Positions 36,257 through 52,886 of a stretch of 64,000 bases of DNA are shown here, piece by piece. Under the pieces are notes generated by a model, which saw only the letters and a list, made by a program, of their open reading frames with translations, searched no databases and had not been told where the DNA came from. The position numbers were made by a program, and so were the translations under genes. Positions within the stretch are counted from its first letter, which is position 1; every line of letters begins with the position of its first letter. This DNA is from Paenibacillus sp. SYP-B4298 (GTDB lineage: Bacteria; Bacillota; Bacilli; Paenibacillales; Paenibacillaceae), in assembly GCF_027627475.1 (NCBI RefSeq), contig NZ_CP115484.1:5345001-5409000 (forward strand), in the 5' to 3' direction.

Positions 36257-37024
36257 TCAGAAGATCGATACCAGTTCCTGTGTATACGCATGGCGCTCCG
36301 GCGCATAGATGTTCTCGGTTGCGAAGCTGTCCACCAGCGCACCCTCCCGCATGACCAGAATGCGGCTGCTCATATGAGCAACGGCAGCCAGATCATGGGA
36401 GATGAACAGGCAAGCCAGCTTCAGCTCGCGCTGCAGCCGCTCCAGCAGTCGCAGCACGGCACCCTGGGACAGCACATCCAGGCTGGCAGTCGGCTCATCG
36501 AGCACCAGCAGCGCAGGCTCGATGCTGATCGCGCGGGCAATGGTCACGCGCTGTTTTTGCCCGCCGCTCAGCTCATGGGGATAGCGTCCCGCTAGTGCTG
36601 GGGATAGCTCGACCGCCTCCAGCAGCTCGCGCACGATAGCGCCCGGCGATACAGCCGTGAAGCAAGAGCGCTGGAGCTGCGAGCCATATTGCTCATACGG
36701 GTCGAGCAGAGACGCTCCGATCGTCAGCCTGGGGTTAAGTGCGGCTGACGGGTGCTGAAAGACGATCTGCATGTCCTTGCGGAAGGGGCGCAGCTGCCGT
36801 TCATTCAACTGCTCGATCGCCTGTCCCTGGAAGAGGATCGAGCCGCTGCTAACGGGCGCAAGGCGCAGTAGGCAACGCGCCAGTGTACTCTTCCCGCAGC
36901 CGCTCTCGCCGACCAGCCCCACACATTCGCCGCGTTGCAGCTCGAATGACAGGTTGCGGATCACCAGCTTGCCACCTTCATACTGCTTCGTGAGCTGCTC
37001 TACAGCCAGCAGCGGCGCGCTCAT
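36257..37024 (-). CDS. ABC transporter ATP-binding protein, NikE/OppF/CntF type (system 1)
   Basis: A 255-residue ATPase of the peptide/nickel/opine ABC family. Walker A is GESGCGKST, the signature LSGGQKQR, Walker [13 protein letters not shown], and the switch His is in FISHDLAAV. It is the last gene of a five-gene leftward operon and overlaps the preceding ATPase gene by 4 nt. With the partner ATPase it energises import through the two permeases encoded upstream. The nearest relative in the window is the ATPase at 47093-47854. Confidence 0.92.
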
Positions 37025-37818
37025 CGCTCCACCTCCAGTCCCGAAGGCAGTAGCGGACGGGGCATGAGCACAGGCGCTGAGGCGATCAACTGCCGCGTAT
37101 AGTCGTGCTGAGGATGATCAAGCACCCGATGCTTGCCACCGCTCTCCACAATCTCTCCGTCCTTCATCACCGCGATCCGGTCTGCATAACGTCGTACATG
37201 CCGCCAATCATGTGTGATGAATAGCAGAGCGCAGCCGCTCTTCTGTCTATGCTCATGCAGGAGATTGAGGATGTGATGGCCGGTGACACTATCCAGCGCG
37301 GTCGTGACCTCATCAGCTACGAGCACATCGGGAGAAAATAGCAAAGCGATCGCAATCCCGATCCGCTGCATCTGGCCCCCGCTTAGCTGGAATGGGTAGC
37401 GTGCGGCCAGTCCGGCATCAAGCCCGACCGACTCCAGCGCAGTCGCTATCCGGTCGCGATTGCCGTTCCGCGACCGCTTGGCATGAGTGCGGATCACCTC
37501 ATCGAAGTGTTGCCCGATGGTACGGAATGGAGCGAAGGCTCCATGAAAATCCTGAAATATATAAGCGAGCTTGCAGCCAAGCAGCCGCCTCATCTCTCGC
37601 CGACTCGCGGCCAACAGATTGTGGCCGCTGTAGGTGATCGTTCCCTCGGCGCGCAGGCCGGGCGGCAGCAGCTGCCCAGCAGAACGGGAGAGCAGGCTCT
37701 TGCCGCTCCCGCTCTGTCCGACCAGCGCATACCATTCGCCCGGCTTGACCTGCAGGCTTACACGGCGGACGAGAGTGCCTGCATGGCTGCGGATCGTAAC
37801 TTGGTTGAAATCCAGCAT
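37021..37818 (-). CDS. ABC transporter ATP-binding protein, NikD/OppD/CntD type (system 1)
   Basis: A 265-residue ATPase. Walker A is GQSGSGKSLLS, signature LSGGQMQR, Walker B VLVADEVTTALD, where the usual Pro after DE is Val. FITHDWRHV holds the switch His. It starts immediately after the stop of the permease gene upstream (37819) and overlaps the next ATPase gene. Its counterpart in system 2 is at 46268-47071. Confidence 0.92.
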   Translation of the reverse strand: MLDFNQVTIRSHAGTLVRRVSLQVKPGEWYALVGQSGSGKSLLSRSAGQLLPPGLRAEGTITYSGHNLLAASRREMRRLLGCKLAYIFQDFHGAFAPFRTIGQHFDEVIRTHAKRSRNGNRDRIATALESVGLDAGLAARYPFQLSGGQMQRIGIAIALLFSPDVLVADEVTTALDSVTGHHILNLLHEHRQKSGCALLFITHDWRHVRRYADRIAVMKDGEIVESGGKHRVLDHPQHDYTRQLIASAPVLMPRPLLPSGLEVER

Positions 37819-38655
37819 CTAGCGGGCCTCCTTTTTGACATCCCAATTATCCCGCAACCGGTCGCCCAGCAGGTTGGTGAACAGTACGGTAAGCACAATC
37901 GCAATCCCTGGAAAGATCATCATCTCCGGCTTCAACTGGAAGTATGGCCTGGCATCGTTCAGCATGGAGCCCCATTCCGGCGTCGGCGGCTGCACGCCCA
38001 ATCCGATGTAGGATAGGGCGGAGATGAGCAGAATAATTTTACCCAGATCGAGACTCGCCAGCACCAGCACTTGACCAGCAATATGCGGGAGCAGATGCTT
38101 GCGCAGCATGGATGCCGCGGACAGCCCATTGGTGCGTGCGACGAGGATATAATCCTTGCTCGTCTCCGAGCGCACTGTGCTGCGAACCACACGGGCATAG
38201 CCCACCCACTTCGCCATTACTATGGCCAGGAGCAGGCTATGAATGCCTGGCCCCATCAGCCCACTAAGAACGATTGCTACGATCATATCCGGAAAGGCGA
38301 GGAAGCCATCTGCCACGCGCATAAAGATGCGATCAAACCAGCCGCCATAGTATCCGGCGATCATACCCGCTAGCGAACCGACCACCAGCGCTAGAGAAAG
38401 AGCAAGCAGGCTATATCCTATCGTGTATTGTCCCCCCATCAGCAGCCGAGCCATGACATCCCGACCGAGGTGGTCGGTGCCGAGCGGATGCTCTATACTT
38501 ATCCCCTGCAGACGGTTGCTAAGCTCGGTGAGCATCGGATCATGGCGTGTCACAGCCAGTGTGTAGACTGTCGTAAGCGCGATGAGGAGTACAAGGCTCA
38601 CGCTTGCTCCCCAAACCAGCCGTTTCTTCCGCTCTTGCTTCGGCAGTAGGTTCAT
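37819..38655 (-). CDS. ABC transporter permease, NikC/OppC/CntC type (system 1)
   Basis: A 278-residue membrane protein with six predicted helices. The EAA-type loop that docks the ATPase is seen around DYILVARTNGLSAASMLRKHLLPHI. The N-terminal OppC-type segment (HPLGTDHLGRDVMARLLMG) is typical. It overlaps the upstream permease gene by 4 nt. Confidence 0.93.
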   Translation of the reverse strand: MNLLPKQERKKRLVWGASVSLVLLIALTTVYTLAVTRHDPMLTELSNRLQGISIEHPLGTDHLGRDVMARLLMGGQYTIGYSLLALSLALVVGSLAGMIAGYYGGWFDRIFMRVADGFLAFPDMIVAIVLSGLMGPGIHSLLLAIVMAKWVGYARVVRSTVRSETSKDYILVARTNGLSAASMLRKHLLPHIAGQVLVLASLDLGKIILLISALSYIGLGVQPPTPEWGSMLNDARPYFQLKPEMMIFPGIAIVLTVLFTNLLGDRLRDNWDVKKEAR

Positions 38656-39599
38656 CCGTTGCGCTCCCTCCCTTGTAGTCTCATCTCCGGGTTTAGATAG
38701 TGGCAGGCCAGATCGACGGTAGCATTGATAATAAATATAAGGAGAGCCATCACCAGGATATAGCCCTGGATCATCGGATAGTCGCGCTGCCTTATCGAAT
38801 CGACGACGAGCTTGCCTACACCGGGATAGGCGAATAGCACCTCGATGACAACGACGCCGCCGATCAGGCTGCCCAGGCTAACACCGAATACAGTAATGAC
38901 CGGCGGCAGACTGTGACGGAAGGTGTATGACCAGAAGATGCGCCAACTGGACAGACCGCGGGCGTGAGCAGCAAGAATAAAATCTTGGCTTAGCGAATCT
39001 AGCAGGCTAGATCGCAGCAGCCGCACGTAGACGCTTGACATGGCAAGTCCTAAAGTGAGAGAGGGCAGCAGCAGCGAATGAAATCCATTTCTCCCCATTG
39101 TGGGCAGCCACCCAAGCCTGACACCTAGCAGGTCAATCAGGATCAGACCAAGCCAGAAGCTGGGGACGGCAGCCCCGACGACTGCAAGAACGCGGCTGAG
39201 CCTGTCCAACCAGCCGCCACGGTAGAGCGCCGCCAGTGAGCCGAGCGGCACCGCAGTGAACACCATGACAGCAATTGCCCCGGCGGTCAGCTCCAGTGTA
39301 GCGGGGAGACTGTCAGCGATCAGCGCCATGACCGGCTGTCCGGTAGCATAGGAAACGCCCAGATCCAGCCGCAGCAGTCGGCCGAGCCAGTGTCCGTACT
39401 GTATCGGCAGCGATTCGTTGAAGCCGAGCTCCTCGCGCAGCGCCTCAACCTGCTCTTGGCTGGCAGCCAGCTCATCGACATTGAGGATCGTCAACACGGG
39501 ATCGCCCGGAGCCAGACGAAGGAACAGGAAGCTGATAAAGGTGACCAGCAGCAGGAAGATCACGATCTCTGTCAGTCTGCGGGCGAAAATACGCAGCAT
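38652..39599 (-). CDS. ABC transporter permease, NikB/OppB/CntB type (system 1)
   Basis: A 315-residue membrane protein with six helices. The typical start (RLTEIVIFLLLVTFISFLFLRLAPGDP), the EAA loop (DFILAAHARGLSSWRIFWSYTFRHSLPP) and the end (QRDYPMIQGYILVMALLIFIINATVDL) place it in the NikB/OppB family. It starts 3 nt after the stop of the binding-protein gene. Confidence 0.93.
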   Translation of the reverse strand: MLRIFARRLTEIVIFLLLVTFISFLFLRLAPGDPVLTILNVDELAASQEQVEALREELGFNESLPIQYGHWLGRLLRLDLGVSYATGQPVMALIADSLPATLELTAGAIAVMVFTAVPLGSLAALYRGGWLDRLSRVLAVVGAAVPSFWLGLILIDLLGVRLGWLPTMGRNGFHSLLLPSLTLGLAMSSVYVRLLRSSLLDSLSQDFILAAHARGLSSWRIFWSYTFRHSLPPVITVFGVSLGSLIGGVVVIEVLFAYPGVGKLVVDSIRQRDYPMIQGYILVMALLIFIINATVDLACHYLNPEMRLQGRERNG

Positions 39600-39602
39600 G
39601 GC

Positions 39603-41207
39603 TTAATTCACATCCAGCAGATTCGTCATCATATAATATTCACTTCGGCTCGTCACCCAGTTTCTCACCTTATCCTTGTCGTAGGCAACAATCGTAGACG
39701 GATGCAGGATGAACGCATTGATGACATTCTCATGCACATAGGCCGCAGCCTGCTCTGCCAGCTTGGAACGCTCCTCTGGCTTGACTGTCCGGTTCAGTTG
39801 GTCGATTATCGCGGTCAGCTCCGGCTCGTCAGAACCACTAAAGTTGAGTGCTCCTGTCGGGTGGTAGGTGGCGTTCAGGTAGTAGCCAGCATCACCGCGC
39901 GGAGCGGTCAGATTACTGTAGGTTGCCAGATCCCAATCCCGATGGGATGCCATATAGTCCTCTGGCGTGTCAATCTGGCGAATCTCCACCTCAATGCCGA
40001 TCCGCTTCGCATCGGATTGGAACACTTGGGCAATCAAGGGCAGGTCGGCGCGTGCGCTGTAGGTGAGCAGCACGAGTCGGAGCGGCGCGCCATCCTTCTG
40101 CATCACGCCGTCTTGCTGAGTATATCCTGCCTCAGCCAGTAGTGAGATCGCCTCCTGAGAGCCGCCCGGAGCCGCGTCATAAGTCGGTGCAAATGGAAGC
40201 GACGGCAGGAACGGCCCCTGAGCAGGCTCTGCGTAGCCGAACAGAATCGTATCCACAATCTGCTGGCGATCAATCAGCGCATCGACTGCTTTGCGCACAT
40301 GGATATTTTGGATGGCTGGGCGTTCCATGTTCATGGTCATCTGATGGACGCGGAACGTAGAGGTGGCTTCCACCTCGAATTCGCCTGAGGCTTTGAGCAC
40401 CTCCAGACTCTCCACCTCCGGGCGGTAGACAATATCGGCCTGGCCAGCCTGCAGCGCAAGTGTGCGGGCATTGGCATCTTCATTAAAAGAAAACGTGATG
40501 CGGTCTAGCTTGGCTGGCCCGTCCCAATAGCTATCGTAACGCTCCAGTTCCAGCTTGCTGCCCGGCGCAAATGACGTTAGCTTGAAGGGCCCAGTGCCGA
40601 TAGGATGATTCATAATATCTGGATCATTAACATCAATAATAGAGACGTTGGGGTGCACCAGCTCAGAGATAAATTCAGGGAAAGGCTGCTTCGTCGTAAT
40701 TTGCAGTGTGTTTCCCTCTGCCGTAATCGTGTCGATCTTGAGTGCATTCGAGATAGCGGCACTCTCCTGCATGGCACGCTCCAGAGAGGCCTTGACTGCC
40801 GTGCCGGTCATGGGGTGGCCGTTATGGAAGGTGATGCCCTTCCTTAGATGAATCGTCCAATGCTGACCGTCCTCGCCCTCCCAAGACGAGGCCAGCCATG
40901 GCACGACCTTTAATTGCTCCTCATCCAGCTTGACGAGCGTCTCGGTAATGCCTGCCCGCAGCGGCACATAGCTGGAATCGACATGTGGGTCAAGCGAGCG
41001 TGTAGAGAAGTTATAGAGAAAACGAAGGTGCTTGCTCTTGATCTCTTCGGATGTCAATGAGTTGGCCCTGGGTACTGAGGTCTGGGCGCAGGCGCTTAAC
41101 AGAAGGGAGGCGAGCAGAATTAAAATGAAGCTACGTCCAGCACCAATAGCAAGGCAAGGCTGGCGGGATAGACGATGCGGTAACGTAGATGTAGGATCTG
41201 AATTCAT
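39603..41207 (-). CDS. ABC transporter substrate-binding lipoprotein, NikA/CntA type (system 1)
   Basis: A 534-residue lipoprotein of the family 5 (peptide/nickel/opine-metal) binding proteins. An unusually long N-terminal extension (about 30 residues) precedes the signal helix with lipobox LLSAC. The mature domain shows the family landmarks: LRFLYNFSTRSLDPH, PWLASSWEGEDGQHWTIHLR, HNGHPMTG, GTGPFKLTSF. The ATG at 41207 fits AAAGGTGG at 5 nt; a GTG three codons earlier overlaps that site. It is the first gene of the leftward operon, preceded by two Zur-box-like sequences, so zinc-controlled uptake of metal or metal-chelate is the best reading. The paralogue is at 42911-44494. Confidence 0.9.
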   Translation of the reverse strand: MNSDPTSTLPHRLSRQPCLAIGAGRSFILILLASLLLSACAQTSVPRANSLTSEEIKSKHLRFLYNFSTRSLDPHVDSSYVPLRAGITETLVKLDEEQLKVVPWLASSWEGEDGQHWTIHLRKGITFHNGHPMTGTAVKASLERAMQESAAISNALKIDTITAEGNTLQITTKQPFPEFISELVHPNVSIIDVNDPDIMNHPIGTGPFKLTSFAPGSKLELERYDSYWDGPAKLDRITFSFNEDANARTLALQAGQADIVYRPEVESLEVLKASGEFEVEATSTFRVHQMTMNMERPAIQNIHVRKAVDALIDRQQIVDTILFGYAEPAQGPFLPSLPFAPTYDAAPGGSQEAISLLAEAGYTQQDGVMQKDGAPLRLVLLTYSARADLPLIAQVFQSDAKRIGIEVEIRQIDTPEDYMASHRDWDLATYSNLTAPRGDAGYYLNATYHPTGALNFSGSDEPELTAIIDQLNRTVKPEERSKLAEQAAAYVHENVINAFILHPSTIVAYDKDKVRNWVTSRSEYYMMTNLLDVN

Positions 41208-41246
41208 GGTGTCCACCTTTCATGTAAGTAAATAGTACGGTTTTTA

Positions 41247-41294
41247 TAAGAGTAAATATTACGATTTATTATAATACCGTAATTATTATTATTA
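41247..41294 (-). promoter_or_regulatory. Two Zur-box-like sites flanking a -10 element
   Basis: Compared with the B. subtilis Zur consensus (AAATCGTAAT-N-ATTACGATTT), 41247-41267 matches 16 of 20 fixed positions, with the entire right half ATTACGATTT perfect; 41274-41294 matches about 15 of 20, with a CCGTAAT left half. Between them, on the minus strand, lies TATAAT (plus 41268-41273), placed to be the -10 of the operon starting at 41207. A repressor bound here would block RNA polymerase. The match count was made by eye. Confidence 0.65.
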
Positions 41295-41358
41295 ATCAAG
41301 CATCTTTTGTTGATATTGAGGGTACCCCACCATGCGGAAGGGACGGTTGTAACCTGCA

Positions 41359-41388
41359 CAGACCAGCGCCGTTTCCGGCGCTGGTCTG
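41359..41388 (-). terminator. Hairpin after the MFS gene
   Basis: A perfect 13-bp stem (CAGACCAGCGCCG with its complement) and a 4-nt loop, 71 nt downstream of the leftward MFS stop codon. There is no T run. It separates the MFS gene from the promoter of the next operon. Confidence 0.6.
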
Positions 41389-41459
41389 GCAATGCATGCG
41401 GATGACGAGCTGTACCGCTCTCCATCACGGGTGAGTGTGTGGCACATGACGACCTGACT

Positions 41460-42674
41460 CTATGAGGTGGCGGTGGAATCTGCGATCGGCTCTCCCATCC
41501 GTCTGCGGCTAGCAATGACCAGCACAGCAGCCCCGGCGGATAAGAGCGTGCATACGGTGAACATGGCAGGGTAGGAGCTGAACTGAACGACAGGCCCCAT
41601 GGCCAGACTTCCCAGAGAGAAGCCAAGATCATAAGATGACATGAAGATGCCCATCAGTACATATCGGGTGTGCGATGGCAGCACGAAGGACAAGTAAGTG
41701 GTCAGTGTCGGGTACAGCAGCGCAACAGCGAAGCCGCTGAAGACGGCGGACAGATACACTGTCGCGCCTAGACTCGCCTGCAGAGCGAGCAGCAGCATGC
41801 CGACAGCAGCCGATCCGAGCAGAGCGGCGATGAGCCGGGGATGCCAGCTTCCGTCCGAAGGAATCCTCTTGCGTAGCACGAAGCGGCAGCTGATCACCAC
41901 TAGTCCCTGGATCGTCAGATATAGTCCTGCACTGTGGGTGCCGGAGGAGACCATATATAGTGGAGCAAATGTCGCTGAAGCGCCGAACACGCATGATGCG
42001 GCCAGCATGACCGTACTGCATACGAGCAGGGGCGTGCTGTGTCCGACTCTGCGCACAGCGAGCAGCAGCTCCTTAGCTGAATAAGCCTGTCCAGCTTCGA
42101 CCGCCTTCGGTAGCCTGGCTGTATAGCCAGCGAGCAGCGGCAATACAGCCAGCGCGAGCAGCAGTATGGCGTATGGCAAGCTGCTGTCCCAGATGTGCAG
42201 CGCGAGCGCGGGCACCGCCAGCGAAGGCAGCATCGTGAATAGTGTGTACATGGACAAGCCCTGACCCCGCTGCTTGTCCGCTAGCTTCTCGACAATGCCA
42301 GCCTGCATCGTCATGGAGAAGAAAGCGGTAGCGACCCCCTGAAGCGCTCTAAGCCATAGATAGCCTGCTGGATTAGCGGCAAGGAATAGGCAGAGCGTGA
42401 CGGCATGGAGGAGCAGGAGCCCCTGCATCACCCTTAACGGCCCATAGCGGCTAAGTAACTGCGCGGCGAAGGGGCGGAGCAGCATGCAGGTGAACATGTA
42501 TCCTCCCATCATCAGCCCAATCTCGGTCTGATTCATGCCTTCTGCTTCACTGCGCAGCGGGAGAATCACGGTCAAGGCCGAATTAGCGGCAAAAAACAGG
42601 AAGGCCAGCACGTACAGACGCAGCATCGGCATAGATAATGGCGTTAGCGGGTCTGGCTCGCGAGTAGTATTCAA
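41460..42674 (-). CDS. MFS exporter, possibly metallophore (CntE-like)
   Basis: A 404-residue, 12-helix major facilitator. The loop after helix 2 has LLSRYGPLRVMQG, a version of MFS motif A. TTG 42674 has GAGAGG 10 nt upstream; the ATGs 14 and 16 codons later are alternatives. The gene lies between two NikABCDE/Cnt-type importers and is divergent from the second. In the staphylopine system an MFS protein (CntE) exports the metallophore that the neighbouring ABC importer brings back, so an export role for a metal chelator is suggested by position. No metallophore synthesis genes (cntK, cntL, cntM) are in the window. Confidence 0.8.
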   Translation of the reverse strand: MNTTREPDPLTPLSMPMLRLYVLAFLFFAANSALTVILPLRSEAEGMNQTEIGLMMGGYMFTCMLLRPFAAQLLSRYGPLRVMQGLLLLHAVTLCLFLAANPAGYLWLRALQGVATAFFSMTMQAGIVEKLADKQRGQGLSMYTLFTMLPSLAVPALALHIWDSSLPYAILLLALAVLPLLAGYTARLPKAVEAGQAYSAKELLLAVRRVGHSTPLLVCSTVMLAASCVFGASATFAPLYMVSSGTHSAGLYLTIQGLVVISCRFVLRKRIPSDGSWHPRLIAALLGSAAVGMLLLALQASLGATVYLSAVFSGFAVALLYPTLTTYLSFVLPSHTRYVLMGIFMSSYDLGFSLGSLAMGPVVQFSSYPAMFTVCTLLSAGAAVLVIASRRRMGEPIADSTATS

Positions 42675-42910
42675 GATGATTCATCCTCTCTTGTACATTC
42701 ATTGGCGGCTTGGAGCCCAATGTATAGGCTGCGCTGCTTTTTGTCAACTCTACACTCTCTGGTACATCCCCCTTCATTGGCTGAGCGAACCTACAATTGT
42801 GTCATTGGGTTCCTCAATTAGCCCCAATATAGCCATTATGAGCTATTACGAAGTGGTCATAATTTGCAGTACGATGTATAACAGCACAGAAAAAGATGGA
42901 GGGAACCATT
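42675..42910. promoter_or_regulatory. Divergent control region between the MFS gene and system 2
   Basis: A 236-bp region that must hold both promoters. At 42835-42863 the inverted pair ATTATGA / TCATAAT encloses ATTACGA (42845-42851), which is a perfect Zur half site, while the outer pair differs from Zur halves by one base each. CATTGG / CCAATG (42700-42722) forms another inverted repeat near the MFS start. Zinc control from here is plausible but weaker than at 41247-41294. Confidence 0.4.
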
Positions 42911-44494
42911 TTGTTTAGAAAGCAAACACTCAAGCAGCTGTTGATTAGCAGCATGGTTATTGTATTGGCGGCGTGCTCCAGCGCGCCTGCGGCAGAACCG
43001 AACACTCCACAGACGGCAACCCCGGGTAGTGGTCAGAGTAGTCCGACGGGTGGACACGGTACTGGGGATAAGGAGTTGGCCTTTCTGTTCAACTTTGCTA
43101 GTCAGACGGTTGATCCGCACTTGGATTATACTCCGCTGCGCGCCGGGGTTGTGGAGACACTGACAAAGCTCGGCGAGGATTTGAGCTTGCAGCCATGGTT
43201 GGCTGAGAGCTGGGAGAGCGCGGACAGTCAGCACTGGACATTCACGATCAGAGATGGCGTCAGCTTTCAGAACGGACATCCGCTCACTGCCGATGCGGTC
43301 AAGCTATCGCTGGAGCGGGCGATGGACATCAATCCGGGCATGAAGAAGGTACTGAGCATTGAGAGTCTGCAGGCAGTTGGGCAGAAGCTGCTAATCGCTA
43401 CAGCGCAGCCTTTCCCACAGTTTCCATATGAGCTGGTGCATCCCAACACCGCTATCATCGACACAAGCGCGGCAGATCCGGACAAGCAGCCCGTGGGAAC
43501 CGGTGCGTTCCGGGTTGTATCGTTCGTCTCCGGCAGCTCGCTCAAGGTAGAGCGTTATGAGCAGTATTGGGATGGAGCGGCCAAGCTCGCTCGCGCATCC
43601 TTCAATTATAACGAGGACCCGAATGCGCGTCTGGCAGCGCTGAAGTCCGGGGAAGCGGACGTGGTCTACCGTCCGCCGGTAGAGAGTGTGACGGAGCTGC
43701 AGCAGGATTCGCAATATCATCTGGACTCGGTCGTCAGCTTGAAGACTCATGAGCTGATCTTCAATATGCACCAGCCGGACTTTCAGAACGTCTACGTGCG
43801 CAAGGCATTTGACGCGTTGGTGAACCGGGAAGAGCTGATGGATGACATTATGGGCGGTCAAGCGACGCTTGCCAAGGGGCCGTTCCTGCCGGACTTCCCA
43901 TTCGTGCCGGCTTATGCAGATAAGGCAACAGGGACAGAGGCGGCATTGGAATGGTTTCGCCAGGCAGGCTTTGAGATTGGGAATGGCAGGGTGACCCGTG
44001 ATGGCGCATCACTGCAGTATAAGCTGGTCACGTATAGCTCGCGCGCAGAATTCCCGCTGTTGGCGCAGGTACTGCAAGCGCAGGCGAAGGAGCTGGGCAT
44101 CGACATCTCGATTGAGCTGCTGGATAACTATGAGGATTATCTGCTTCAGCAGGATACCTGGGACTTGGGCACCTACAGCCCATTGATTGCGCCGCGTGGA
44201 GATGCCAGCTACTTCCTGAATGTGTCCTTCCAACCGGATGGAGCACTCAATTTCGGCAAAATTAATGATTTGGAGCTTAGCGCCATGATCGATGAGCTGG
44301 ATCAGACGGCAGACCCTGGCAAGCGCAATACATTGATCAGCCAAGCGCTTCAGCGAATTGACGAGCAGTCTTATTACTCCTATCTGGTGCACCCGAATAC
44401 AATGGTTGCCTACAGGGATCGTGTGAAGAATTGGGTAACCAGCAAGAGCGAATATTACATGCTGAACAAGGATCTGGATGTGCAGGATGAATGA
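42911..44494 (+). CDS. ABC transporter substrate-binding lipoprotein, NikA/CntA type (system 2)
   Basis: A 527-residue family 5 binding lipoprotein, clearly paralogous to the protein at 39603-41207 (shared YTPLRAGVVETLTKL, GHPLTADAVKLSLERAM, FVPAY and APRGDASYFLN regions). A signal helix with lipobox VLAAC is followed by a Ser/Thr/Pro/Gly linker. The TTG at 42911 fits GGAGGG at 7 nt; the ATG at 42896 overlaps that site. It is the first gene of an eight-gene rightward unit that ends with a ZnuABC-type system. The ligand is probably a metal complex; peptide uptake cannot be ruled out from sequence alone. Confidence 0.9.
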   Translation: MFRKQTLKQLLISSMVIVLAACSSAPAAEPNTPQTATPGSGQSSPTGGHGTGDKELAFLFNFASQTVDPHLDYTPLRAGVVETLTKLGEDLSLQPWLAESWESADSQHWTFTIRDGVSFQNGHPLTADAVKLSLERAMDINPGMKKVLSIESLQAVGQKLLIATAQPFPQFPYELVHPNTAIIDTSAADPDKQPVGTGAFRVVSFVSGSSLKVERYEQYWDGAAKLARASFNYNEDPNARLAALKSGEADVVYRPPVESVTELQQDSQYHLDSVVSLKTHELIFNMHQPDFQNVYVRKAFDALVNREELMDDIMGGQATLAKGPFLPDFPFVPAYADKATGTEAALEWFRQAGFEIGNGRVTRDGASLQYKLVTYSSRAEFPLLAQVLQAQAKELGIDISIELLDNYEDYLLQQDTWDLGTYSPLIAPRGDASYFLNVSFQPDGALNFGKINDLELSAMIDELDQTADPGKRNTLISQALQRIDEQSYYSYLVHPNTMVAYRDRVKNWVTSKSEYYMLNKDLDVQDE

Positions 44495-45429
44495 AGCGTC
44501 TTTTCCGGCGGCTCGTTGAATTTGTCCTGTTCATTCTGGTGTTATCGTTTATCAGCTTCGTCGTGATGAAGCTGGCACCGGGAGATGCTATAAGAGCGCT
44601 GCTGCGCGCAGATGATGTGGCCCTCGACACGGCTGCAATCGAGCGTCAGCGTGAGGCGATGGGCTTCAATGATCCGCTCTGGAAGCAATATGGGCAATGG
44701 CTGGGACATGTGCTTCAGTTCGATCTGGGACAGTCGTACATGACGAGGCGGCCTGTAACGGAGGAACTGCTGAGCCGATTACCAGCGACGATTCTGCTGA
44801 CAGGCGCCTCGCTTCTGGTGATGCTGTCGGTTGCGTTGCCGCTGGGCGTTGCCTCAGCGCTTCGTCCGAATCGACCGCTGGATCGGATTAGCAGGGTACT
44901 GGCTATCGCCGGCACCTCTATTCCAAGCTTCTGGCTGGGTATACTGCTCATCGAGTTGCTGTCCGTTCAGATGGGATGGCTGCCGTCAATGGGAACCGGA
45001 AGTGCGCGTCATCTGGTGCTTCCAGCCCTGACGCTGGGGCTGACGATGGCTGCTGTGTATACGAGGCTGCTGCGCGCAAGCTTATTGGAGAGCTTGGGAC
45101 AAGAGTTCGTAAGAGGTGCGCGCGCCCGTGGCGTTTCGCCTGTGCGTATCGTACTTCGTCACGCGCTTAGCCATGCCTTGACTCCAGTGCTGGCTATGTT
45201 TGGCGTCAGCCTGGGCAGCCTGCTTGGGGGCACTGTCGTTGTTGAGGTGCTGTTCGCTTACCCGGGGATGGGCAAGCTGGTCGTGGATGCGATTCAGAGC
45301 CGGGACTACCCGGTCATCCAAGGATATATGGTCGTTACCGCGCTCCTGATCACCCTGTGTAACCTAGCTGTAGACGGTGTGCAGCTATGGTTGAATCCTG
45401 AGATGAGGCTGCGAGGTGGGAAAAGGTGA
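44491..45429 (+). CDS. ABC transporter permease, NikB/OppB/CntB type (system 2)
   Basis: A 312-residue, six-helix permease. The ATG overlaps the stop codon of the binding-protein gene (GAATGAAG), so the two are translationally coupled. The EAA loop is EFVRGARARGVSPVRIVLRHAL. It is the paralogue of 38652-39599. Confidence 0.93.
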   Translation: MKRLFRRLVEFVLFILVLSFISFVVMKLAPGDAIRALLRADDVALDTAAIERQREAMGFNDPLWKQYGQWLGHVLQFDLGQSYMTRRPVTEELLSRLPATILLTGASLLVMLSVALPLGVASALRPNRPLDRISRVLAIAGTSIPSFWLGILLIELLSVQMGWLPSMGTGSARHLVLPALTLGLTMAAVYTRLLRASLLESLGQEFVRGARARGVSPVRIVLRHALSHALTPVLAMFGVSLGSLLGGTVVVEVLFAYPGMGKLVVDAIQSRDYPVIQGYMVVTALLITLCNLAVDGVQLWLNPEMRLRGGKR

Positions 45430-46271
45430 AATTATTGTGGAGCTGGATATGCCGCGCCCACCACTGGCTCGGTATAGCGGGTTGGGCTTTGCTGCTGCTC
45501 GTTGGCCTGCTGTTGCTCGCATCGTGGATGCCCCCCCATGATCCTTATAGCATCAGCATGAGCCGCCGTCTCCAGCCGTCTTCGGCGGAGCATTGGCTCG
45601 GTACAGATGGGCTGGGACGCGATCTGTTCTCGCGATTGCTGGCAGGAGGGCGCAATACTCTGGGAGCCAGTCTGCTCATACTCGCTGCAGCCCTGATGAT
45701 TGGCGTCCCGATCGGCCTTCTGTCGGGCTATGCCGGTGGCTGGGTTGATCGCGCCTTCATGCGGTTGGCGGATTCCTTTATGGCCTTCCCCGACTTCTTG
45801 TTTGCCATCGTGCTAAGTGGGCTAATGGGACCGCATATCGTCAATTTGATGCTGGCGATTGCACTGGTCAAATGGATTGCCTATGCGCGCATCGTTCGCA
45901 ATGTTGTACGCAGTGAGAAGAGTAAGGATTATATAACCGTAGCCAAGCTGAATGGTCTGGGCCCGATTCGCCTAATGACGAAGCACCTGCTGCCGCATGC
46001 GCTCCGTCATGTGCTGGTGCTCGCAGGGCTGGATACCGGGAAAATCATTCTGATGATTGCTGCTCTCTCCTATATTGGCCTGGGTGTACAGCCTCCTGAG
46101 CCAGAATGGGGTTCTATGCTCAACGAGGGGCGGGTATACTTCCGCCAGTCCGCCTATCTGATGATCTGGCCGGGGCTGGCTATCATGCTCGCGGCGGCTC
46201 TTGCCAACCTGACAGGCGACCATATCCGCACACGGCTCGGTACCCATGACATCGGAGGTCGGAACGAATGA
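45426..46271 (+). CDS. ABC transporter permease, NikC/OppC/CntC type (system 2)
   Basis: A 281-residue, six-helix permease starting with GTG inside the end of the preceding gene (4-nt overlap). OppC-type landmarks are HWLGTDGLGRDLFSRLLAGG and the EAA loop DYITVAKLNGLGPIRLMTKHLL. It is the paralogue of 37819-38655. Confidence 0.93.
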   Translation: MKLLWSWICRAHHWLGIAGWALLLLVGLLLLASWMPPHDPYSISMSRRLQPSSAEHWLGTDGLGRDLFSRLLAGGRNTLGASLLILAAALMIGVPIGLLSGYAGGWVDRAFMRLADSFMAFPDFLFAIVLSGLMGPHIVNLMLAIALVKWIAYARIVRNVVRSEKSKDYITVAKLNGLGPIRLMTKHLLPHALRHVLVLAGLDTGKIILMIAALSYIGLGVQPPEPEWGSMLNEGRVYFRQSAYLMIWPGLAIMLAAALANLTGDHIRTRLGTHDIGGRNE

Positions 46272-47071
46272 GAGAGGTGCTGGTATTGCGTGATGTGGCC
46301 ATTGGAACGGACTCCCGCCTATTGACGCAGCCTACGAGCCTCGCTATCCACGAGGGCAACTGTATGGCTCTGATCGGTGAGAGCGGTAGCGGCAAGTCCC
46401 TGACTGGCCTTGCCATAGGAGGCTTGCTGCCGCCAGGCGTGCAACTGCAGCAGGGCTCCATCATGCTGGATGGCTTGGGGCTGCATGCCTGCGCGCCCAA
46501 GGTGCTGGCCCGTATGCGGGGCAGCCAAATCGGATATATTTTTCAAAACTATGCGGGTATGTTCAGCCCCCAGATTCGACTAGGCTTGCAACTGGATGAG
46601 AGTTTGAAGGCACACTGTCGGGATAATCGCAGGGAGAGGCAGCGGAGGATTCGAGCAGCACTGGAGGAGGTTCGATTGCCAGCGGAGAGGGTAGAGCGCA
46701 GCTATACCTTCCAGCTTAGCGGCGGGCAGCTTCAGCGTGTATCGATTGCCTGTGCGCTGCTGCTGAAGCCGCGGCTGCTTATCGCGGACGAGCCCACAAC
46801 GGCGCTGGATCCGGCTACCAGCGAGGAGATTCTGCAACTGCTGCGCAAGCTCGCGCAGCGGACAAACTGTGCGCTGCTGCTCATTACGCATGATCTGCGT
46901 ATTGCCAGACGATACGCGGATCGCATCGCGGTGATGTGGCAAGGCAGCATCGTCGAGGAGGGAGAAGCCGCGCAGGTGCTGGGAGATCCTGTCCACACCT
47001 ATACCTGTGAATTGCTGGCGGCAGAGCGTCTGCTATGCGGGCGCGCGGAGGGCGGTCGTGCAGGCCGGTAA
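46268..47071 (+). CDS. ABC transporter ATP-binding protein, NikD/OppD/CntD type (system 2)
   Basis: A 267-residue ATPase. Walker A is GESGSGKSLTG, signature LSGGQLQR, Walker B LLIADEPTTALD and switch LITHDL. It overlaps the permease gene by 4 nt. Unlike the copy in system 1, the Pro after the Walker B DE is kept. Confidence 0.92.
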   Translation: MREVLVLRDVAIGTDSRLLTQPTSLAIHEGNCMALIGESGSGKSLTGLAIGGLLPPGVQLQQGSIMLDGLGLHACAPKVLARMRGSQIGYIFQNYAGMFSPQIRLGLQLDESLKAHCRDNRRERQRRIRAALEEVRLPAERVERSYTFQLSGGQLQRVSIACALLLKPRLLIADEPTTALDPATSEEILQLLRKLAQRTNCALLLITHDLRIARRYADRIAVMWQGSIVEEGEAAQVLGDPVHTYTCELLAAERLLCGRAEGGRAGR

Positions 47072-47092
47072 AAGAGCAATGAGGACGGAGCG

Positions 47093-47854
47093 ATGCAAGA
47101 GAGAAGGTGGATGGGAGAGATGGGCATGAGAGACGAAGCTGTGTCACAGGACAGGCCGGCTGTACTGTCGGTTCGCCACCTATGCAAGACCTATGCGCAT
47201 CAGGTGCGCGCACTGGACGAGGTGTCCTTTGACATTCGTCAGGGAGAATGTCTGGGGCTGGTCGGCGAGAGCGGCAGCGGCAAGACGACGCTCGGGCGCT
47301 GTATTCTGCTGCTGGAGCAGGCGGATTCGGGGGACATCCTCTTTCTTGGTCAGTCCGTGTCCCGCCACAGCGGACATGCGCTCTATCACGGCAGGCTGCA
47401 GGCTGTATTCCAGAATCCCGCGACCAGCCTGAACGAGCGGCTTCGAGTCATCGATTCCCTGATGGAGCCGCTGGATGCGTTGAGGCGACGGAGTAGCGAG
47501 GCTCGCGCCTACCGCGCCCGGCGCGATCGGCATGCGGAGCAGCTGTTGGAGCAGGTCGGGCTGGACCCGGAGCTGCTTGGGCGCTATCCCGCGCAACTGA
47601 GCGGCGGACAGAAGCAACGGGTCTCGATTGCCCGGGCGATTAGCATTGAACCGGCCTTCATCGTCTTCGATGAGCCGACTGCCAGTCTGGATATGCTAGT
47701 GCAGGCTCAAATACTGAAGCTGCTCAAGGATCTGCAGCGCCAGCTTCAGTATAGCGCCCTGTTTATCTCACATGATCCAGCCGCAATCGCTTATATGTCA
47801 GATCGGGTGCTGAGGCTGGACGGGGGTCGTATACGACAGGATGAGCTAGGCTGA
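47093..47854 (+). CDS. ABC transporter ATP-binding protein, NikE/OppF/CntF type (system 2)
   Basis: A 253-residue ATPase with Walker [13 protein letters not shown], signature LSGGQKQR, Walker [13 protein letters not shown] and switch FISHDPAAI. The true start is uncertain: ATGs at 47093, 47111, 47120 and 47126 are in frame, and the last has GGGAGAG at a good distance. It completes the second five-gene importer and is followed 23 nt later by the zinc-type ABC genes. Confidence 0.9.
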
Positions 47855-47877
47855 GATCAAGCTGGAGGTGATGCAGG

Positions 47878-48588
47878 ATGATGCGGGAAGAGCAGCCCGC
47901 TATTGATCTGCAAGGGGTAACGGTGGGATACAATCGCTCGGTGGTATTAAGTGGGCTTACCCTTAGGGTTGGGGAAGGAGAGGCGGTGGCTATCGTAGGT
48001 GAGAATGGGGCAGGCAAGACGACGTTGTTCCGAACGATCCTGCAACTGTTGCCTGTGGAGGAGGGGCAGGTCGCGCTGCTTGGACGAACGATCCGCTCGC
48101 AACGTGATCGGCGTTGGGTGCGTGCCTTGATTGGCTATGTCCCGCAATCTCAGGGAGAGGGAAAATTCCCCATTGCTGCAGAGGAGGCTGTATTGTTGGG
48201 TCGATGGGGCACCTCCTTTGGCCTGGGCAGGCGTCCAGATCGGCGTGATCGTGAGCTGGCCGCGGAGATGCTGGAGCGGGTCGGCCTCGCCTCACAGCGG
48301 CGCACAGACTACAGGCTGCTGTCCGGAGGTCAGCGGCAGCGTCTGAATATTGCCCGCGCACTCGTTCGTCAGCCGCGCATCCTGCTGCTGGACGAGCCCT
48401 CCACCTACTTGGATGAGGAGTCCCGCAGCATGCTGAGTCGGCTGGTGAGAGAGGTTAGACAGCAGGAACGAATGGCGGTGGTTACGATTACGCATCTGCA
48501 AGAGGAAGCGCGGCAGATGTCGGAGCGGCTGCTGCTATTGCGACAGGGCAAGCTATATGCCTATACGGGCACAGAGGAAGGGACATGA
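47878..48588 (+). CDS. Metal ABC transporter ATP-binding protein, ZnuC type
   Basis: A 236-residue ATPase of the zinc/manganese (cluster 9 / family 9) uptake systems. Walker A is GENGAGKTTL, signature LSGGQRQR, Walker B ILLLDEPSTYLDEE, and switch His in TITHLQEEA. It couples with the ABC-3 type permease that starts 4 nt before its end. It lies in the same unit as the system 2 importer, which links that importer to metal uptake. ATG 47881 is an equally good start. Confidence 0.9.
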   Translation: MMREEQPAIDLQGVTVGYNRSVVLSGLTLRVGEGEAVAIVGENGAGKTTLFRTILQLLPVEEGQVALLGRTIRSQRDRRWVRALIGYVPQSQGEGKFPIAAEEAVLLGRWGTSFGLGRRPDRRDRELAAEMLERVGLASQRRTDYRLLSGGQRQRLNIARALVRQPRILLLDEPSTYLDEESRSMLSRLVREVRQQERMAVVTITHLQEEARQMSERLLLLRQGKLYAYTGTEEGT

Positions 48589-49388
48589 CCATCTGGGAGT
48601 ATTTGCAGCTGCCAGTTTTTCAGCGAGCGCTGTTGGCTGCTGTGCTGGCAGGCGCGGCGATTTCTTTGTTGGGCATCGTCATTGTCATGCTGAACCTGAC
48701 GACGATTCGATTTGCCTTGATGCACATGGCACTACTGGGAGGCGCGGTGGGGCTGCTCCTGGGCACAGCTCCTCTCATGGGGGCGATGGGAGGAATCATC
48801 GCCGGATCGCTGTTACTGGGTCCCTTGTCCCGCAAGCTAAAGCTGGATACGGGGCTGATTGGAGCCTTCTTCATGACCGGAGCCATCGCGCTTGCGTTTC
48901 TCATCTTTCATGCCTCCGGTACACCGGCGATGGATGTCTTCGGATTGTTCGCAGGCAGCATTCTGACACTGACGACACTGGATATGATTGTGCTAGGCAT
49001 CTTGTCGGCGGCAGTCGTCTTGGTGTACGTATTCTTCTATAGAGAGCTGCAACTGCTGTTTTATGATGAAGCACAGGCCGAATGGCTGGGCGTACCCGTA
49101 GAAACCATCAAGAGCGCACTGTTGTTTTTAACCGGGCTATCGATCGGTGTCATCATGAAGCTGGTCGGGGCGCTTATGATTGATGCCATTATCCTCCTGC
49201 CGGCAATGGCGGCGCTGCGGGTTGGCCGCAGCTTCAGGCAGTTGATGGCATGGACAGCGTGCTTCGGCCTGCTGACGACTTGTGGCGGTCTGCTGTTGTC
49301 GATGCAATTTGATTTCCCTACCGGGGCGAGTATTACGATTACAGGGGTTGCGGTGCTCGTGCTGACGTATATCGTGCGCCGTCCCTGA
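48585..49388 (+). CDS. Metal ABC transporter permease, ZnuB type
   Basis: A 267-residue protein with about eight hydrophobic helices of the ABC-3 permease family. Landmarks are FALMHMALLGGAVGLLLG near the N-terminus and LMIDAIILLPAMAALRVGRSF near the C-terminus. It overlaps the ATPase gene by 4 nt. Confidence 0.92.
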   Translation: MTIWEYLQLPVFQRALLAAVLAGAAISLLGIVIVMLNLTTIRFALMHMALLGGAVGLLLGTAPLMGAMGGIIAGSLLLGPLSRKLKLDTGLIGAFFMTGAIALAFLIFHASGTPAMDVFGLFAGSILTLTTLDMIVLGILSAAVVLVYVFFYRELQLLFYDEAQAEWLGVPVETIKSALLFLTGLSIGVIMKLVGALMIDAIILLPAMAALRVGRSFRQLMAWTACFGLLTTCGGLLLSMQFDFPTGASITITGVAVLVLTYIVRRP

Positions 49389-49425
49389 AAATAGTGACAC
49401 TTCAAAAAAGAGGAGAATTCTGAAC

Positions 49426-50436
49426 ATGAGACATTGGACAGCAAGAAAAGCGGCCTTCGCAATGGTGATGGCGCTAGTACTGACAGCATGCGGTAGTGGG
49501 CAAGGAGATCTTTCGGAGGCGGCAGAGAATACGGGCAGTTCGCCTGCGGCCGGACAGGAGCGGCAGTCCTCCGCTGGACACGGTGGTCAGCAGGAAGATG
49601 GGGGAGAGCATGGGCAGCAGACCAGTGACGCTCATGGATCATCTGGGAACAGCCATCACAAGCAAGCAAGCGCCAGCAACCATGGCAGTAGCCACGGCGG
49701 CGGCAACGGAGCTTCCGGAACACAGACGACGCGTGAGAATAAGGCGGTTGCACTCTCCGAGGTGAAGGGCGTGGTCGCCTCCACTAGCCTGACGGCATTA
49801 ATCGCGGAGGCGGCGGGGGCTAGTCAGGTAAGCTATATCGCGCCGATCGAGCTGCGGCATCCGCCGGAATATGACTATCGTCCAAGCGATATAGACAAAG
49901 TGGCTGATAGCTACATCGTCTATCTCGGCTATGAGCCATTCATGACCAAGCTGATGGAGGCGGCGCAGGTCTCGCCGGATTGGGCGGCAACTATTGAAGT
50001 AGACAATACACCGGACAGCTACAAGCAGGCCACAAGGAAGCTTGCGGACATCTGGGGCACTCAAGATAAGCAGACGCATTTTTTGAAAGAACTGGATACT
50101 TTGTCAGATGAGATTATTCAGGCGGCTCACGGTCAGGACGTGTCCGCGAAAAAAGTGGTGGCTCAGGTCTACATGGCTCCCTTCTTAAAATGGTTGGGCT
50201 ATAATGTTGTCGCGGAATACGGCCCGGACGAGGTGACGCCTTCGCAACTGGCTAATCTGGCCAAGCTGGAGCCGGAGCTAATCGTCGACAATGCCCACAT
50301 GCCTCAAGGAGCGGGCTTTGCTCAGATCGCCAAGGATACGAAGCGAGTTGAGCTTCGTAGCTATCCCGAACAAGGAATGACTACAGTGCTAGATATATTG
50401 CGCTACAACGCCCAGCAGTTGGGGCTGGTGCACTAA
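49426..50436 (+). CDS. Zinc-binding lipoprotein, ZnuA type, with His-rich linker
   Basis: A 336-residue metal-binding lipoprotein (cluster A-I). Lipobox VLTAC is followed by about 75 residues very rich in His, Gly, Ser and Gln (about residues 45-100, with runs such as HGSSGNSHHK and HGSSHGGGNG). A flexible His-rich segment is typical of zinc-specific ZnuA proteins, although it usually lies as a loop in the middle of the fold; here it is N-terminal. The binding domain follows (VVASTSLTALIAEAAGA, ELRHPPEYDYRPSDIDKV with the first metal His, and VDNAHMPQGAGF near the C-terminus with another). It ends the eight-gene metal-uptake unit. Confidence 0.88.
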   Translation: MRHWTARKAAFAMVMALVLTACGSGQGDLSEAAENTGSSPAAGQERQSSAGHGGQQEDGGEHGQQTSDAHGSSGNSHHKQASASNHGSSHGGGNGASGTQTTRENKAVALSEVKGVVASTSLTALIAEAAGASQVSYIAPIELRHPPEYDYRPSDIDKVADSYIVYLGYEPFMTKLMEAAQVSPDWAATIEVDNTPDSYKQATRKLADIWGTQDKQTHFLKELDTLSDEIIQAAHGQDVSAKKVVAQVYMAPFLKWLGYNVVAEYGPDEVTPSQLANLAKLEPELIVDNAHMPQGAGFAQIAKDTKRVELRSYPEQGMTTVLDILRYNAQQLGLVH

Positions 50437-52777: not shown

Positions 52778-52886
52778 CGATAGAGCCATCTGCTTCGCGG
52801 CCAACAGTTTCGTTGAACCGTTCCGAGTGGTAAGGTAATAGTATCATTAACAGCCGTCTAATCGCGGCTTGAGGAGTGGAACTACA

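What the first reader, a model, noticed from the sequence alone, without database searches (positions are those of the whole stretch)
36257..50436. Zinc/metallophore uptake island with two divergent NikABCDE/Cnt importers, an MFS exporter and a ZnuABC system
Seen: two complete five-gene importer sets with the same gene order, transcribed away from each other, an MFS gene between them, and ZnuC-ZnuB-ZnuA-type genes co-linear with the second set. The ZnuA-type protein is His-rich and two Zur-like sites precede the first set. Known: staphylopine-type systems pair a NikABCDE-like (Cnt) importer with an MFS exporter (CntE), and related opine zincophores exist in Paenibacillus. Inference: the region imports zinc both free and as a chelate, and the MFS exports the chelator. 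Unusual points are the duplication of the whole importer and the absence of cntKLM-type synthesis genes next to it.
Basis: partly seen in the sequence, partly recalled or inferred. Interest (0 to 1): 0.75.

Follow-up and report, generated by a model that had tools for sequence, protein, structure and literature searches.

The report
Two chelate importers, two metal regulons
What looked like one zinc-uptake island joins two old, separately controlled importers of metal-chelator complexes: one carries zinc-response switches, the other a different switch shared with respiration and probable copper genes, which hints at an overlooked kind of copper-scavenging system.

Summary
In detail: two five-gene Opp/Nik importers, a CntE-like MFS between them, and an ABC-3 importer behind the second. 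The all-zinc reading is half right. The importers are not a local duplication but deep paralogous clades. Nik1 orthologs carry Zur boxes (41 of 41 genomes); the window copy has two weak ones. Nik2 orthologs have none; they share another dyad, TRRCYC-N4-GRGYYA, also found in opine-biosynthesis loci (including this genome's second one) and, in some relatives, before cytochrome bd, PepSY_TM, cupredoxin and response-regulator genes. Of 64 related importer promoters, 40 have only a Zur box, 20 only the dyad, none both. Neighbouring Nos-, CopA- and Cyd-type genes suggest copper; this is inference. 'ZnuA' matches no Pfam or NCBIfam family, and 0 of 11 relatives of its operon have a Zur box. Synthesis genes are absent here, but the genome has two opine loci elsewhere, one staphylopine-type with a Zur-like box, one with the dyad. 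The MFS is a CntE sister paralog whose orthologs follow cntE in staphylopine-type operons of one genus. Metals and ligands are untested.

The parts
36257..37024 (-). Nik1 ATPase 2 (NikE/CntF position)
   Evidence: ORF; Opp/Nik-type ATPase, below the cut-offs of the 25 families shown
37021..37818 (-). Nik1 ATPase 1 (NikD/CntD position)
37819..38655 (-). Nik1 permease C (Opp2C type)
   Evidence: Opp2C 336.9 bits, cut-off 300
38652..39599 (-). Nik1 permease B (Opp2B type)
   Evidence: Opp2B 423.4 bits, cut-off 350
39603..41216 (-). Nik1 substrate-binding lipoprotein (Opp5A_nikA type), member of the Nik1 clade whose promoters carry Zur boxes
   Evidence: 715.6 bits, cut-off 600; SBP tree; orthologs' Zur boxes
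41250..41264 (.). Zur-like box (3 mismatches), just downstream of the -10-like hexamer of a promoter-like match
41277..41291 (.). second Zur-like box (3 mismatches), between the hexamers (overlapping the first) of a promoter-like match for Nik1 (41295-41268)
41460..42674 (-). MFS exporter, sister paralog of CntE
   Evidence: CntE equivalog NF047574 377.9 bits, cut-off 235; tree; orthologs behind cntE in staphylopine-type clusters
42830..42845 (.). dyad TAGCCA-N4-GAGCTA (one mismatch to TRRCYC-N4-GRGYYA) in the divergent MFS/Nik2 region, 50 bp before Nik2A
   Evidence: the only site with 2 or fewer mismatches to TAGCTC-N4-GAGCTA in the window
42896..44494 (+). Nik2 substrate-binding lipoprotein (Opp5A_nikA type), Nik2 clade
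   Evidence: 659.4 bits, cut-off 600
44491..45429 (+). Nik2 permease B
   Evidence: Opp2B 416.7, cut-off 350
45426..46271 (+). Nik2 permease C
   Evidence: Opp2C 335.7, cut-off 300
46268..47071 (+). Nik2 ATPase 1
47093..47854 (+). Nik2 ATPase 2
47878..48588 (+). metal-type ABC ATPase (AztA/ZnuC-like)
   Evidence: best AztA 143 bits, below cut-off 220; 23 bp behind Nik2 ATPase 2
48585..49388 (+). ABC-3 permease (ZnuB/AztB-like)
   Evidence: PF00950 144.8 bits, cut-off 20.1; AztB 105.9, below cut-off 280
49426..50436 (+). divergent substrate-binding lipoprotein ('ZnuA' position) with a His-containing linker
   Evidence: no NCBIfam or Pfam match at E 0.001, no PDB sequence match at E 1; C-B-A trio in 11 of 12 relatives, the twelfth locus starting too late to show C and B; alignment

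Best explanation
The island is a junction of two separately controlled chelate-uptake units with a metallophore exporter between them. (1) Nik1 is a Zur-repressed ABC importer that takes up zinc as a complex with a small chelator (an opine, or a foreign chelator such as nicotianamine or histidine). (2) Nik2-ZnuCBA is an operon under a different dyad operator, probably read by a NarL-type two-component system, that serves a respiration-linked metal, most likely copper. Nik2 imports the metal bound to an opine-type chelator, probably the product of this genome's second opine locus (cntL, cntM, methyltransferase, EamA), which has the same dyad before its SBP gene; the ABC-3 importer takes the metal in another form. 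(3) The MFS, a CntE sister paralog, exports or recycles an opine made elsewhere in the genome. Shown by sequence: gene identities, two deep clades, the mutually exclusive operators, the two synthesis loci. Inferred: metals, ligands, regulator, direction of MFS transport, co-transcription of Nik2 and ZnuCBA.
For: Nik1: 20 of 20 ortholog upstream intergenic regions have a Zur box with 3 or fewer mismatches (19 of 20 with 2 or fewer) against 26 and 18 of 550 other genes; in a wider 420-bp stretch, 41 of 41 distinct upstream regions (41 genomes) have 2 or fewer, against a mean of 0.1 (maximum 3) for 100 permuted motifs. Some Nik1 orthologs lie near COG0523 genes (L198, L213). Nik2: 0 of 9 Zur; strict dyad TAGCTC-N4-GAGCTA in 9 of 9 with 3 or fewer mismatches and 7 of 9 with 2 or fewer, against 27 and 6 of 550 (several of the 6 share the Nik2 intergenic region). 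Widened dyad, 0 or 1 mismatch, before cntL in L163, L184, L186, L189, L191, L193, L194 and before the SBP of own locus A; strict dyad with 1 mismatch before znuC of P. taiwanensis. 64 importer promoters: 40 Zur only, 20 dyad only, 0 both, 4 neither. In relatives the widened dyad has 19 intergenic hits of 21; permuted motifs have mean 0.85, maximum 10, 0 of 179 reaching it. Nik2A-E lie directly behind a complete opine operon in L163. Copper/respiration context: nosD-like, NosL, ResA-like, sensor kinase and NarL-type genes ahead of the opine locus in L193; CopA-type ATPase behind Nik2 in L161; PepSY_TM (L161), cupredoxin (L173) and cytochrome bd (L186) genes with dyads. Own genome: cytochrome bd genes, a kinase ortholog and a PepSY_TM gene within about 25 kb of opine locus A, with an exact widened dyad in the kinase/PepSY_TM promoter. 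MFS: 38 genomes besides this one have an ortholog at 61% or more; 31 have an opine dehydrogenase, 23 within 10 kb.
Against: The window's own Zur boxes have 3 mismatches each and its dyad one mismatch to the widened form. The widened form TRRCYC-N4-GRGYYA was drawn from the same promoters on which searches then count it; with the strict form the opine-locus sites have 1 to 4 mismatches. In 530 kb of this genome the dyad is no commoner than permuted motifs (3 sites, permuted mean 2.6; 2 counted as intergenic, reached by 10 of 179), so only position speaks for it here, and one of the 3 sites precedes a membrane gene without any Pfam match. The pattern TAGCYC-N4-GRGCTA gave 7 sites in 6 of 11 genomes, 6 of them before Nik2A, but none in G000, and the reversed control pattern had 18. 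The cognate NarL-type regulator was not found in the parts of this genome held; only the kinase. Own cytochrome bd has no dyad with 1 or fewer mismatches. None of the 10 other ZnuCBA-type loci has the strict dyad with 2 or fewer mismatches. CopA-type genes also lie near Zur-type importers in L176-L178. 23 of 59 Nik1 genomes and 7 of 38 MFS genomes have no opine dehydrogenase, so neither needs a self-made opine. Related sequences are not independent. No metal binding was tested.
Confidence: 0.5

Rival explanations
1. One reading: the whole island is one zinc system; both importers and ZnuABC serve zinc, and the MFS exports the zincophore.
For: Nik1 orthologs are Zur-linked; ABC-3 permeases are common in zinc uptake (family knowledge; PF00950); MFS orthologs sit with cntE and COG0523 in staphylopine-type clusters.
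Against: Nik2 orthologs: 0 of 9 Zur; a different operator shared with respiration genes of relatives; 0 of 11 ZnuCBA-type operons with a Zur box of 4 or fewer mismatches; the SBP matches no ZnuA model; the genome has two PF01297 (ZnuA-family) proteins elsewhere.
Confidence: 0.2
2. The dyad regulon answers to oxygen, nitrate or nitric oxide through a NarL-type two-component system, and the metal it serves is not copper but iron, nickel, cobalt or molybdenum for respiratory enzymes.
For: The regulator and kinase beside the opine locus in L193 resemble NarL and NarQ (177.1 and 118.8 bits, both below the equivalog cut-offs); neighbours include cytochrome bd and c-type cytochromes.
Against: The neighbours also include NosL, a CopA-type ATPase and a cupredoxin, copper proteins by family knowledge; cytochrome bd is the copper-independent oxidase (PMC13344008, passage).
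Confidence: 0.25
3. Both importers are nickel importers, as NCBIfam names would say.
For: Both SBPs and permeases pass the NCBIfam nickel-named models; the closest PDB sequence is 3t66, deposited as nickel-binding.
Against: No NikR match in this genome; Zur boxes in the Nik1 clade; opine dehydrogenase within 10 kb of 19 of 33 class III relatives.
Confidence: 0.12
4. The MFS is unrelated to metallophores (general drug or amino-acid efflux) and only sits there by chance.
For: 7 of 38 genomes with an ortholog have no opine dehydrogenase, and in L095 and L098 it has neither importer nor cnt genes beside it.
Against: CntE equivalog score; 23 of 38 within 10 kb of an opine dehydrogenase; directly behind importers in L103 and L125.
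Confidence: 0.2

Closest known systems
Staphylopine/bacillopaline Cnt system (CntKLM, CntABCDF, CntE)
   Same: Opp/Nik-type importer plus CntE-like MFS; this genome has a full staphylopine-type set at 0.35 Mb
   Different: No synthesis genes next to the window importers; SBPs score 129.6 and 82.7 against a CntA cut-off of 800; the MFS is in a sister clade of CntE
Opp2/Opp5A 'nickel' importer (NikABCDE of Staphylococcus aureus, SaNikA; this naming is recalled)
   Same: SBP and permeases pass the same NCBIfam models; SaNikA 4ofj matches Nik1A at 265.8 bits
   Different: Nik1 clade carries Zur boxes; Nik2 clade carries a non-Zur dyad; no NikR match in this genome
Methyltransferase-containing opine clusters without racemase (cluster 5 of Morey and Kehl-Fie 2020, PMC7438024; sections 8 and 9 read, otherwise passages)
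   Same: Own opine locus A: CntL, CntM, dipeptide-type importer, EamA, PF13489 methyltransferase, no CntK seen
   Different: That paper treats its clusters as zincophore clusters; here the relatives of locus A have the dyad and no Zur box. Assignment to cluster 5 is by resemblance only, not tested
Chalkophore systems (mycobacterial diisonitrile lipopeptides; PMC12140626, search listing only)
   Same: Copper chelator uptake tied to respiratory oxidases (by analogy)
   Different: Different chemistry and genes; no copper binding shown here
ZnuABC/AztABC zinc importers
   Same: ABC-3 permease and metal-type ATPase
   Different: Scores below the Azt and Znu cut-offs shown; the SBP matches no ZnuA model; no Zur box in 11 relatives

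Membership tests
Staphylopine-type Cnt system | CntA-type SBP | tested here: not met
   129.6 and 82.7 bits, cut-off 800
Staphylopine-type Cnt system | CntE-type MFS exporter | tested here: met
   377.9 bits, cut-off 235; but in a sister clade of true CntE
Staphylopine-type Cnt system | cntKLM synthesis genes in the cluster | tested here: not met
   None seen among the ORFs of 33-54 kb; the opine dehydrogenase search of the whole genome hits only two places outside the window; synthesis sets at those places
Opp2/Opp5A importer group | SBP and both permeases above curated cut-offs | tested here: met
   both sets
Opp2/Opp5A importer group | Nickel transport | not testable with these tools
   No NikR match in this genome
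Zur regulon | Zur box before Nik1 | tested here: met
   Two 3-mismatch boxes in the window (weak); 41 of 41 distinct ortholog upstream regions with 2 or fewer mismatches
Zur regulon | Zur box before Nik2-ZnuCBA | tested here: not met
   Best 5 mismatches in the window; 0 of 9 orthologs with 3 or fewer
ZnuABC | ZnuA-family SBP (PF01297) with metal-site histidines | tested here: not met
   No Pfam match; one invariant His, H145, in the alignment of 10
ZnuABC | ABC-3 permease | tested here: met
   PF00950 144.8 bits
Chalkophore (copper chelator) system | Copper-responsive control | tested here: inconclusive
   Shared dyad and copper/respiration neighbours in relatives; no expression data
Chalkophore (copper chelator) system | Chelator binds copper and is imported | not testable with these tools
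   needs chemistry

The most novel reading that the evidence does not exclude
One branch of bacterial opine metallophores (CntL-CntM-methyltransferase type, with EamA exporter, its Opp-type importer, the separate Nik2 importer and here an ABC-3 importer) is a copper-acquisition regulon, an opine chalkophore, driven by a NarL-type two-component system through TRRCYC-N4-GRGYYA and tied to oxidase choice. Its Zur-controlled relatives do the same job for zinc, and several genomes keep a zinc copy and a copper copy side by side (window Nik1/Nik2; tandem pairs in L180, L181, L183).
Probability: 0.35. Interest if true: 0.85.

Novelty: new variant of a known kind. Interest (0 to 1): 0.62.

Why it matters
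Opine metallophores are treated mainly as zincophores in the papers seen here. A promoter split that divides these importers into a Zur group and a group sharing an operator with respiration and probable copper genes would make metal specificity predictable from sequence and testable in culture. It also means that the database name 'nickel ABC transporter' is probably wrong for an importer present in 59 of 295 sampled genomes of the family, and that an exporter-importer pair can be kept without synthesis genes beside it. If the copper reading holds, it would be a chemically simple copper-scavenging route in common soil bacteria.

Tried and rejected
Rejected: local duplication of the importer (tree; each set has its own orthologs in other genera). 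NikR control of Nik2: an ATTATGA-N15-TCATAAT repeat in the window looked NikR-like, but this genome has no NikR match and the repeat was not among those found upstream of the 9 orthologs. RNA switch: no Rfam match near the island at gathering scores. Zinc control of ZnuCBA: no Zur box in 11 loci. The 434-aa membrane gene next to the PepSY_TM gene in this genome was first taken for a CopD-like copper protein; Pfam gives no match, so it is not used as copper evidence. Structure of the ZnuA-like protein: not obtained.

Limits: opine dehydrogenase, MFS and SBP counts come from 295 genomes 'drawn evenly' from the family, typed by hand from the tables into the script; one 65% MFS fragment (G113) was left out; 5 of the 88 opine dehydrogenase genomes hold only fragments by my reading; the MFS table is cut off at weaker hits; one search scored 4 candidates a genome. 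The Fisher values ignore relatedness. The neighbourhood maps rest on best BLASTP hits to this genome's proteins; the locus B CntD reference was entered out of frame (16 stops), so CntD of staphylopine-type clusters shows under other labels. Of the relatives' genomes only stretches around SBP or MFS hits were read: 92 neighbourhoods. In one search opine-operon rows were allowed several upstream regions each, one of 65 rows (L187) could not be measured, and L164 is counted as 'neither' although its dyad is present, hidden by a spurious ORF. The control was the reversed strict pattern (2 hits against 15 strict and 34 widened, some in overlapping loci); the fairer control is. Names of neighbours in L194, and of the cydAB-like genes of L172 and L173, rest on similarity or eye, not on a Pfam run. 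The other dyad results not quoted above: class III SBPs 2 of 18 and window-type MFS 4 of 19 with 2 or fewer mismatches, Nik1A 0 of 20.


Full report
What is there. The window lies at 5,345,001-5,409,000 of a single-contig 6.26 Mb genome, a Paenibacillaceae member by inference. Both SBPs, both B permeases and both C permeases pass the curated NCBIfam cut-offs of the Opp5A_nikA/Opp2 group, and the MFS passes the CntE cut-off; the CntA model is far from met. The ABC-3 system behind Nik2 is only weakly Azt/Znu-like, and its SBP matches nothing in NCBIfam, Pfam or, at E up to 1, the PDB sequences.

Synthesis elsewhere. The genome has two opine dehydrogenase genes and two cntL-type genes outside the window. 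Locus B (0.35 Mb, L020) is a full staphylopine-type set, cntK-cntL-cntM-cntABCDF-cntE, with an SBP above the CntA cut-off (935.2, cut-off 800), an MFS above the CntE cut-off, and a Zur-like box upstream. Locus A (3.9 Mb, L021) has cntL, cntM, an Opp5A-type SBP (626.5, cut-off 600), permeases and ATPases, an EamA exporter and a methyltransferase, and no cntK was seen. The CntK, CntL and CntM homologs score below the NCBIfam equivalog cut-offs, so their exact products are unknown.

Two clades, not a duplication. Nik1 and Nik2 proteins are 45-61% identical; locus A's importer is 37-50% identical to them (its ATPases as close as Nik1 and Nik2 are to each other) and locus B's SBP and permeases 24-38%. 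In a tree of 86 SBPs, 68 form one group (100) that holds a Nik1 clade (21 rows, 100), a Nik2 clade (11 rows, 100), a third clade (8 rows, 99) and a clade rich in opine-linked SBPs (27 rows, 91; including locus A). Of 33 table rows of the last kind, 19 lie within 10 kb of an opine dehydrogenase. Nik1 orthologs occur in 59 of 295 family genomes including this one, 36 of them with an opine dehydrogenase hit (33 without fragments) and 23 without. In relative L163 a Nik2 set lies directly behind a complete locus A-type opine operon on the same strand.

Promoters split the family in two. Zur-like boxes of this genome are seen before two COG0523-type genes, a PF01297 znuA and cntK. Upstream of Nik1A orthologs, 20 of 20 intergenic regions have a match with 3 or fewer mismatches against 26 of 550 other genes, and in a wider stretch 41 of 41 distinct upstream regions have 2 or fewer, against a mean of 0.1 for permuted motifs. 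Nik2A orthologs have 0 of 9. They carry TAGCTC-N4-GAGCTA-like dyads instead: 9 of 9 with 3 or fewer mismatches, 7 of 9 with 2 or fewer; other genes 27 and 6 of 550. Widened to TRRCYC-N4-GRGYYA, after seeing the sites before cntL, the dyad recurs with 0 or 1 mismatch before cntL or the SBP of locus A-type clusters, before znuC of Paenibacillus taiwanensis, and before a PepSY_TM gene and two response-regulator genes, and with 1 or fewer mismatches before cupredoxin and cytochrome bd genes. Over 65 SBP rows, 64 measured, 40 have only a Zur box (3 or fewer mismatches), 20 only a dyad (1 or fewer), 0 both and 4 neither. Among 550 other upstream regions 12 have a dyad with 1 or fewer mismatches; these include two response regulators, PepSY_TM, cupredoxin, cytochrome bd subunit I and exporter genes divergent from Nik2 in L159 and L162 (EamA in L159). 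Three relatives have tandem importers or clusters of which one has a Zur box and the other a dyad (L180, L181, L183), the same pairing as in the window.

In the window itself the signals are weaker: the Nik1 boxes have 3 mismatches each but lie on a promoter-like match, and the dyad at 42830-42845 has one mismatch to the widened consensus and is the only site with 2 or fewer mismatches to the strict one in 64 kb. In the 530 kb of this genome that was scanned there are 3 exact widened dyads, no more than permuted motifs give; they lie before the locus A SBP, between a kinase and a PepSY_TM gene, and before a membrane gene without Pfam match.

Which metal for Nik2. In L193 the opine locus follows nosD-like, NosL- and ABC-type genes, a ResA-like gene, a histidine kinase and a NarL-type regulator; in L161 Nik2 is preceded by a kinase and two regulators and followed by a CopA-type P-ATPase (TIGR01511 610.8, cut-off 397) and a PepSY_TM gene; in L172 and L173 it lies beside cydAB-like genes, the kinase/regulator pair and a cupredoxin; in L186 cytochrome bd genes follow the opine operon. 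In this genome cytochrome bd genes lie about 7 kb from cntL of locus A, and an ortholog of the kinase (66% to L193) with a divergent PepSY_TM gene about 22 kb away. NosL, CopA-type pumps and cupredoxins are copper proteins by family knowledge, and cytochrome bd is the oxidase that needs none (PMC13344008, passage). Copper is therefore the best guess, but an oxygen- or nitrate-linked regulon serving another metal is not excluded.

The MFS. Window-type MFS proteins form a supported clade (100/98) apart from the one that holds this genome's locus B CntE (100/99). In 38 other genomes with 61% or more identity, 31 have an opine dehydrogenase, 23 within 10 kb. In the five such clusters mapped in genus g7 it directly follows cntE, and a COG0523 gene follows it in turn. 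Behind importers without synthesis genes in view it occurs in L103 and L125. Seven genomes have it without an opine dehydrogenase hit. MATE proteins stand behind the importer in 7 of 20 mapped Nik1 loci and 5 of 8 third-clade loci, by sequence similarity to those tested, and MFS, EamA and MatE are the three exporter types reported for zincophore clusters (PMC7438024, section 9). Export or recycling of a chelator is the likeliest role.

Literature. Cluster C Opp/NikA SBPs are said to bind metal chelates, and CntABCDF with staphylopine imports zinc in S. aureus (PMC5666155, passages); a later paper links metallophore use there to copper intoxication (PMC10653882, search listing). A transposon screen in Streptococcus agalactiae found uncharacterised Nik/Opp-type importers important under calprotectin (PMC7667036, passages). 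A predicted Zur regulon of Bacillus anthracis showed no nickel- or oligopeptide-importer passage for those words (PMC6336718, passages). Searches for 'zur box' with 'nickel abc transporter' (0 papers), for chalkophore with opine and copper acquisition (none of the 15 listed papers holds all three terms) and for staphylopine, copper, Paenibacillus and cytochrome bd (none of the 8 listed holds all four) found no report of the split described here; they cover open-licence papers only.

Verdict. Real and orderly, but not one zinc island: a Zur-type zinc arm and a second arm under another operator, probably copper-linked, with a CntE-like exporter between them and synthesis in trans.

Noticed in passing
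L167-L171, L174, L209-L214, L216: MATE-type efflux genes (PF01554 in the three tested) lie directly behind synthesis-free Opp5A-type importers.
   Followed up: partly
L180, L181, L183: Tandem opine clusters or SBPs of which one copy has a Zur box and the other the dyad.
   Followed up: partly
L020:283-7660: Upstream of the staphylopine-type locus: MFS, leuC/leuD-like, FAD-dependent, aminotransferase-like and GAPDH-like genes, read by eye; possibly a separate biosynthetic cluster.
   Followed up: no
L021:4923-6860: Permease C and ATPase D of opine locus A are fused in one 645-aa frame.
   Followed up: no
L020:16707-18149: The locus B CntE carries an insert of roughly 75 residues between two halves of the model.
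   Followed up: no
42830-42845 and L159:7828-8796: Nik2 is divergent from an exporter gene in the window (MFS) and in L159 (EamA; the start of the L162 gene is the same), with a dyad in the shared region.
   Followed up: partly
window 52869-54626: AraC-type regulator with a periplasmic-binding domain, weakly Btr-like (165.7 bits, cut-off 900); no link to the island seen.
   Followed up: no
L049-L059: ZnuCBA-type trios of MAGs, in part behind serS- and glyA-like genes by eye, without a Zur box or strict dyad.
   Followed up: no
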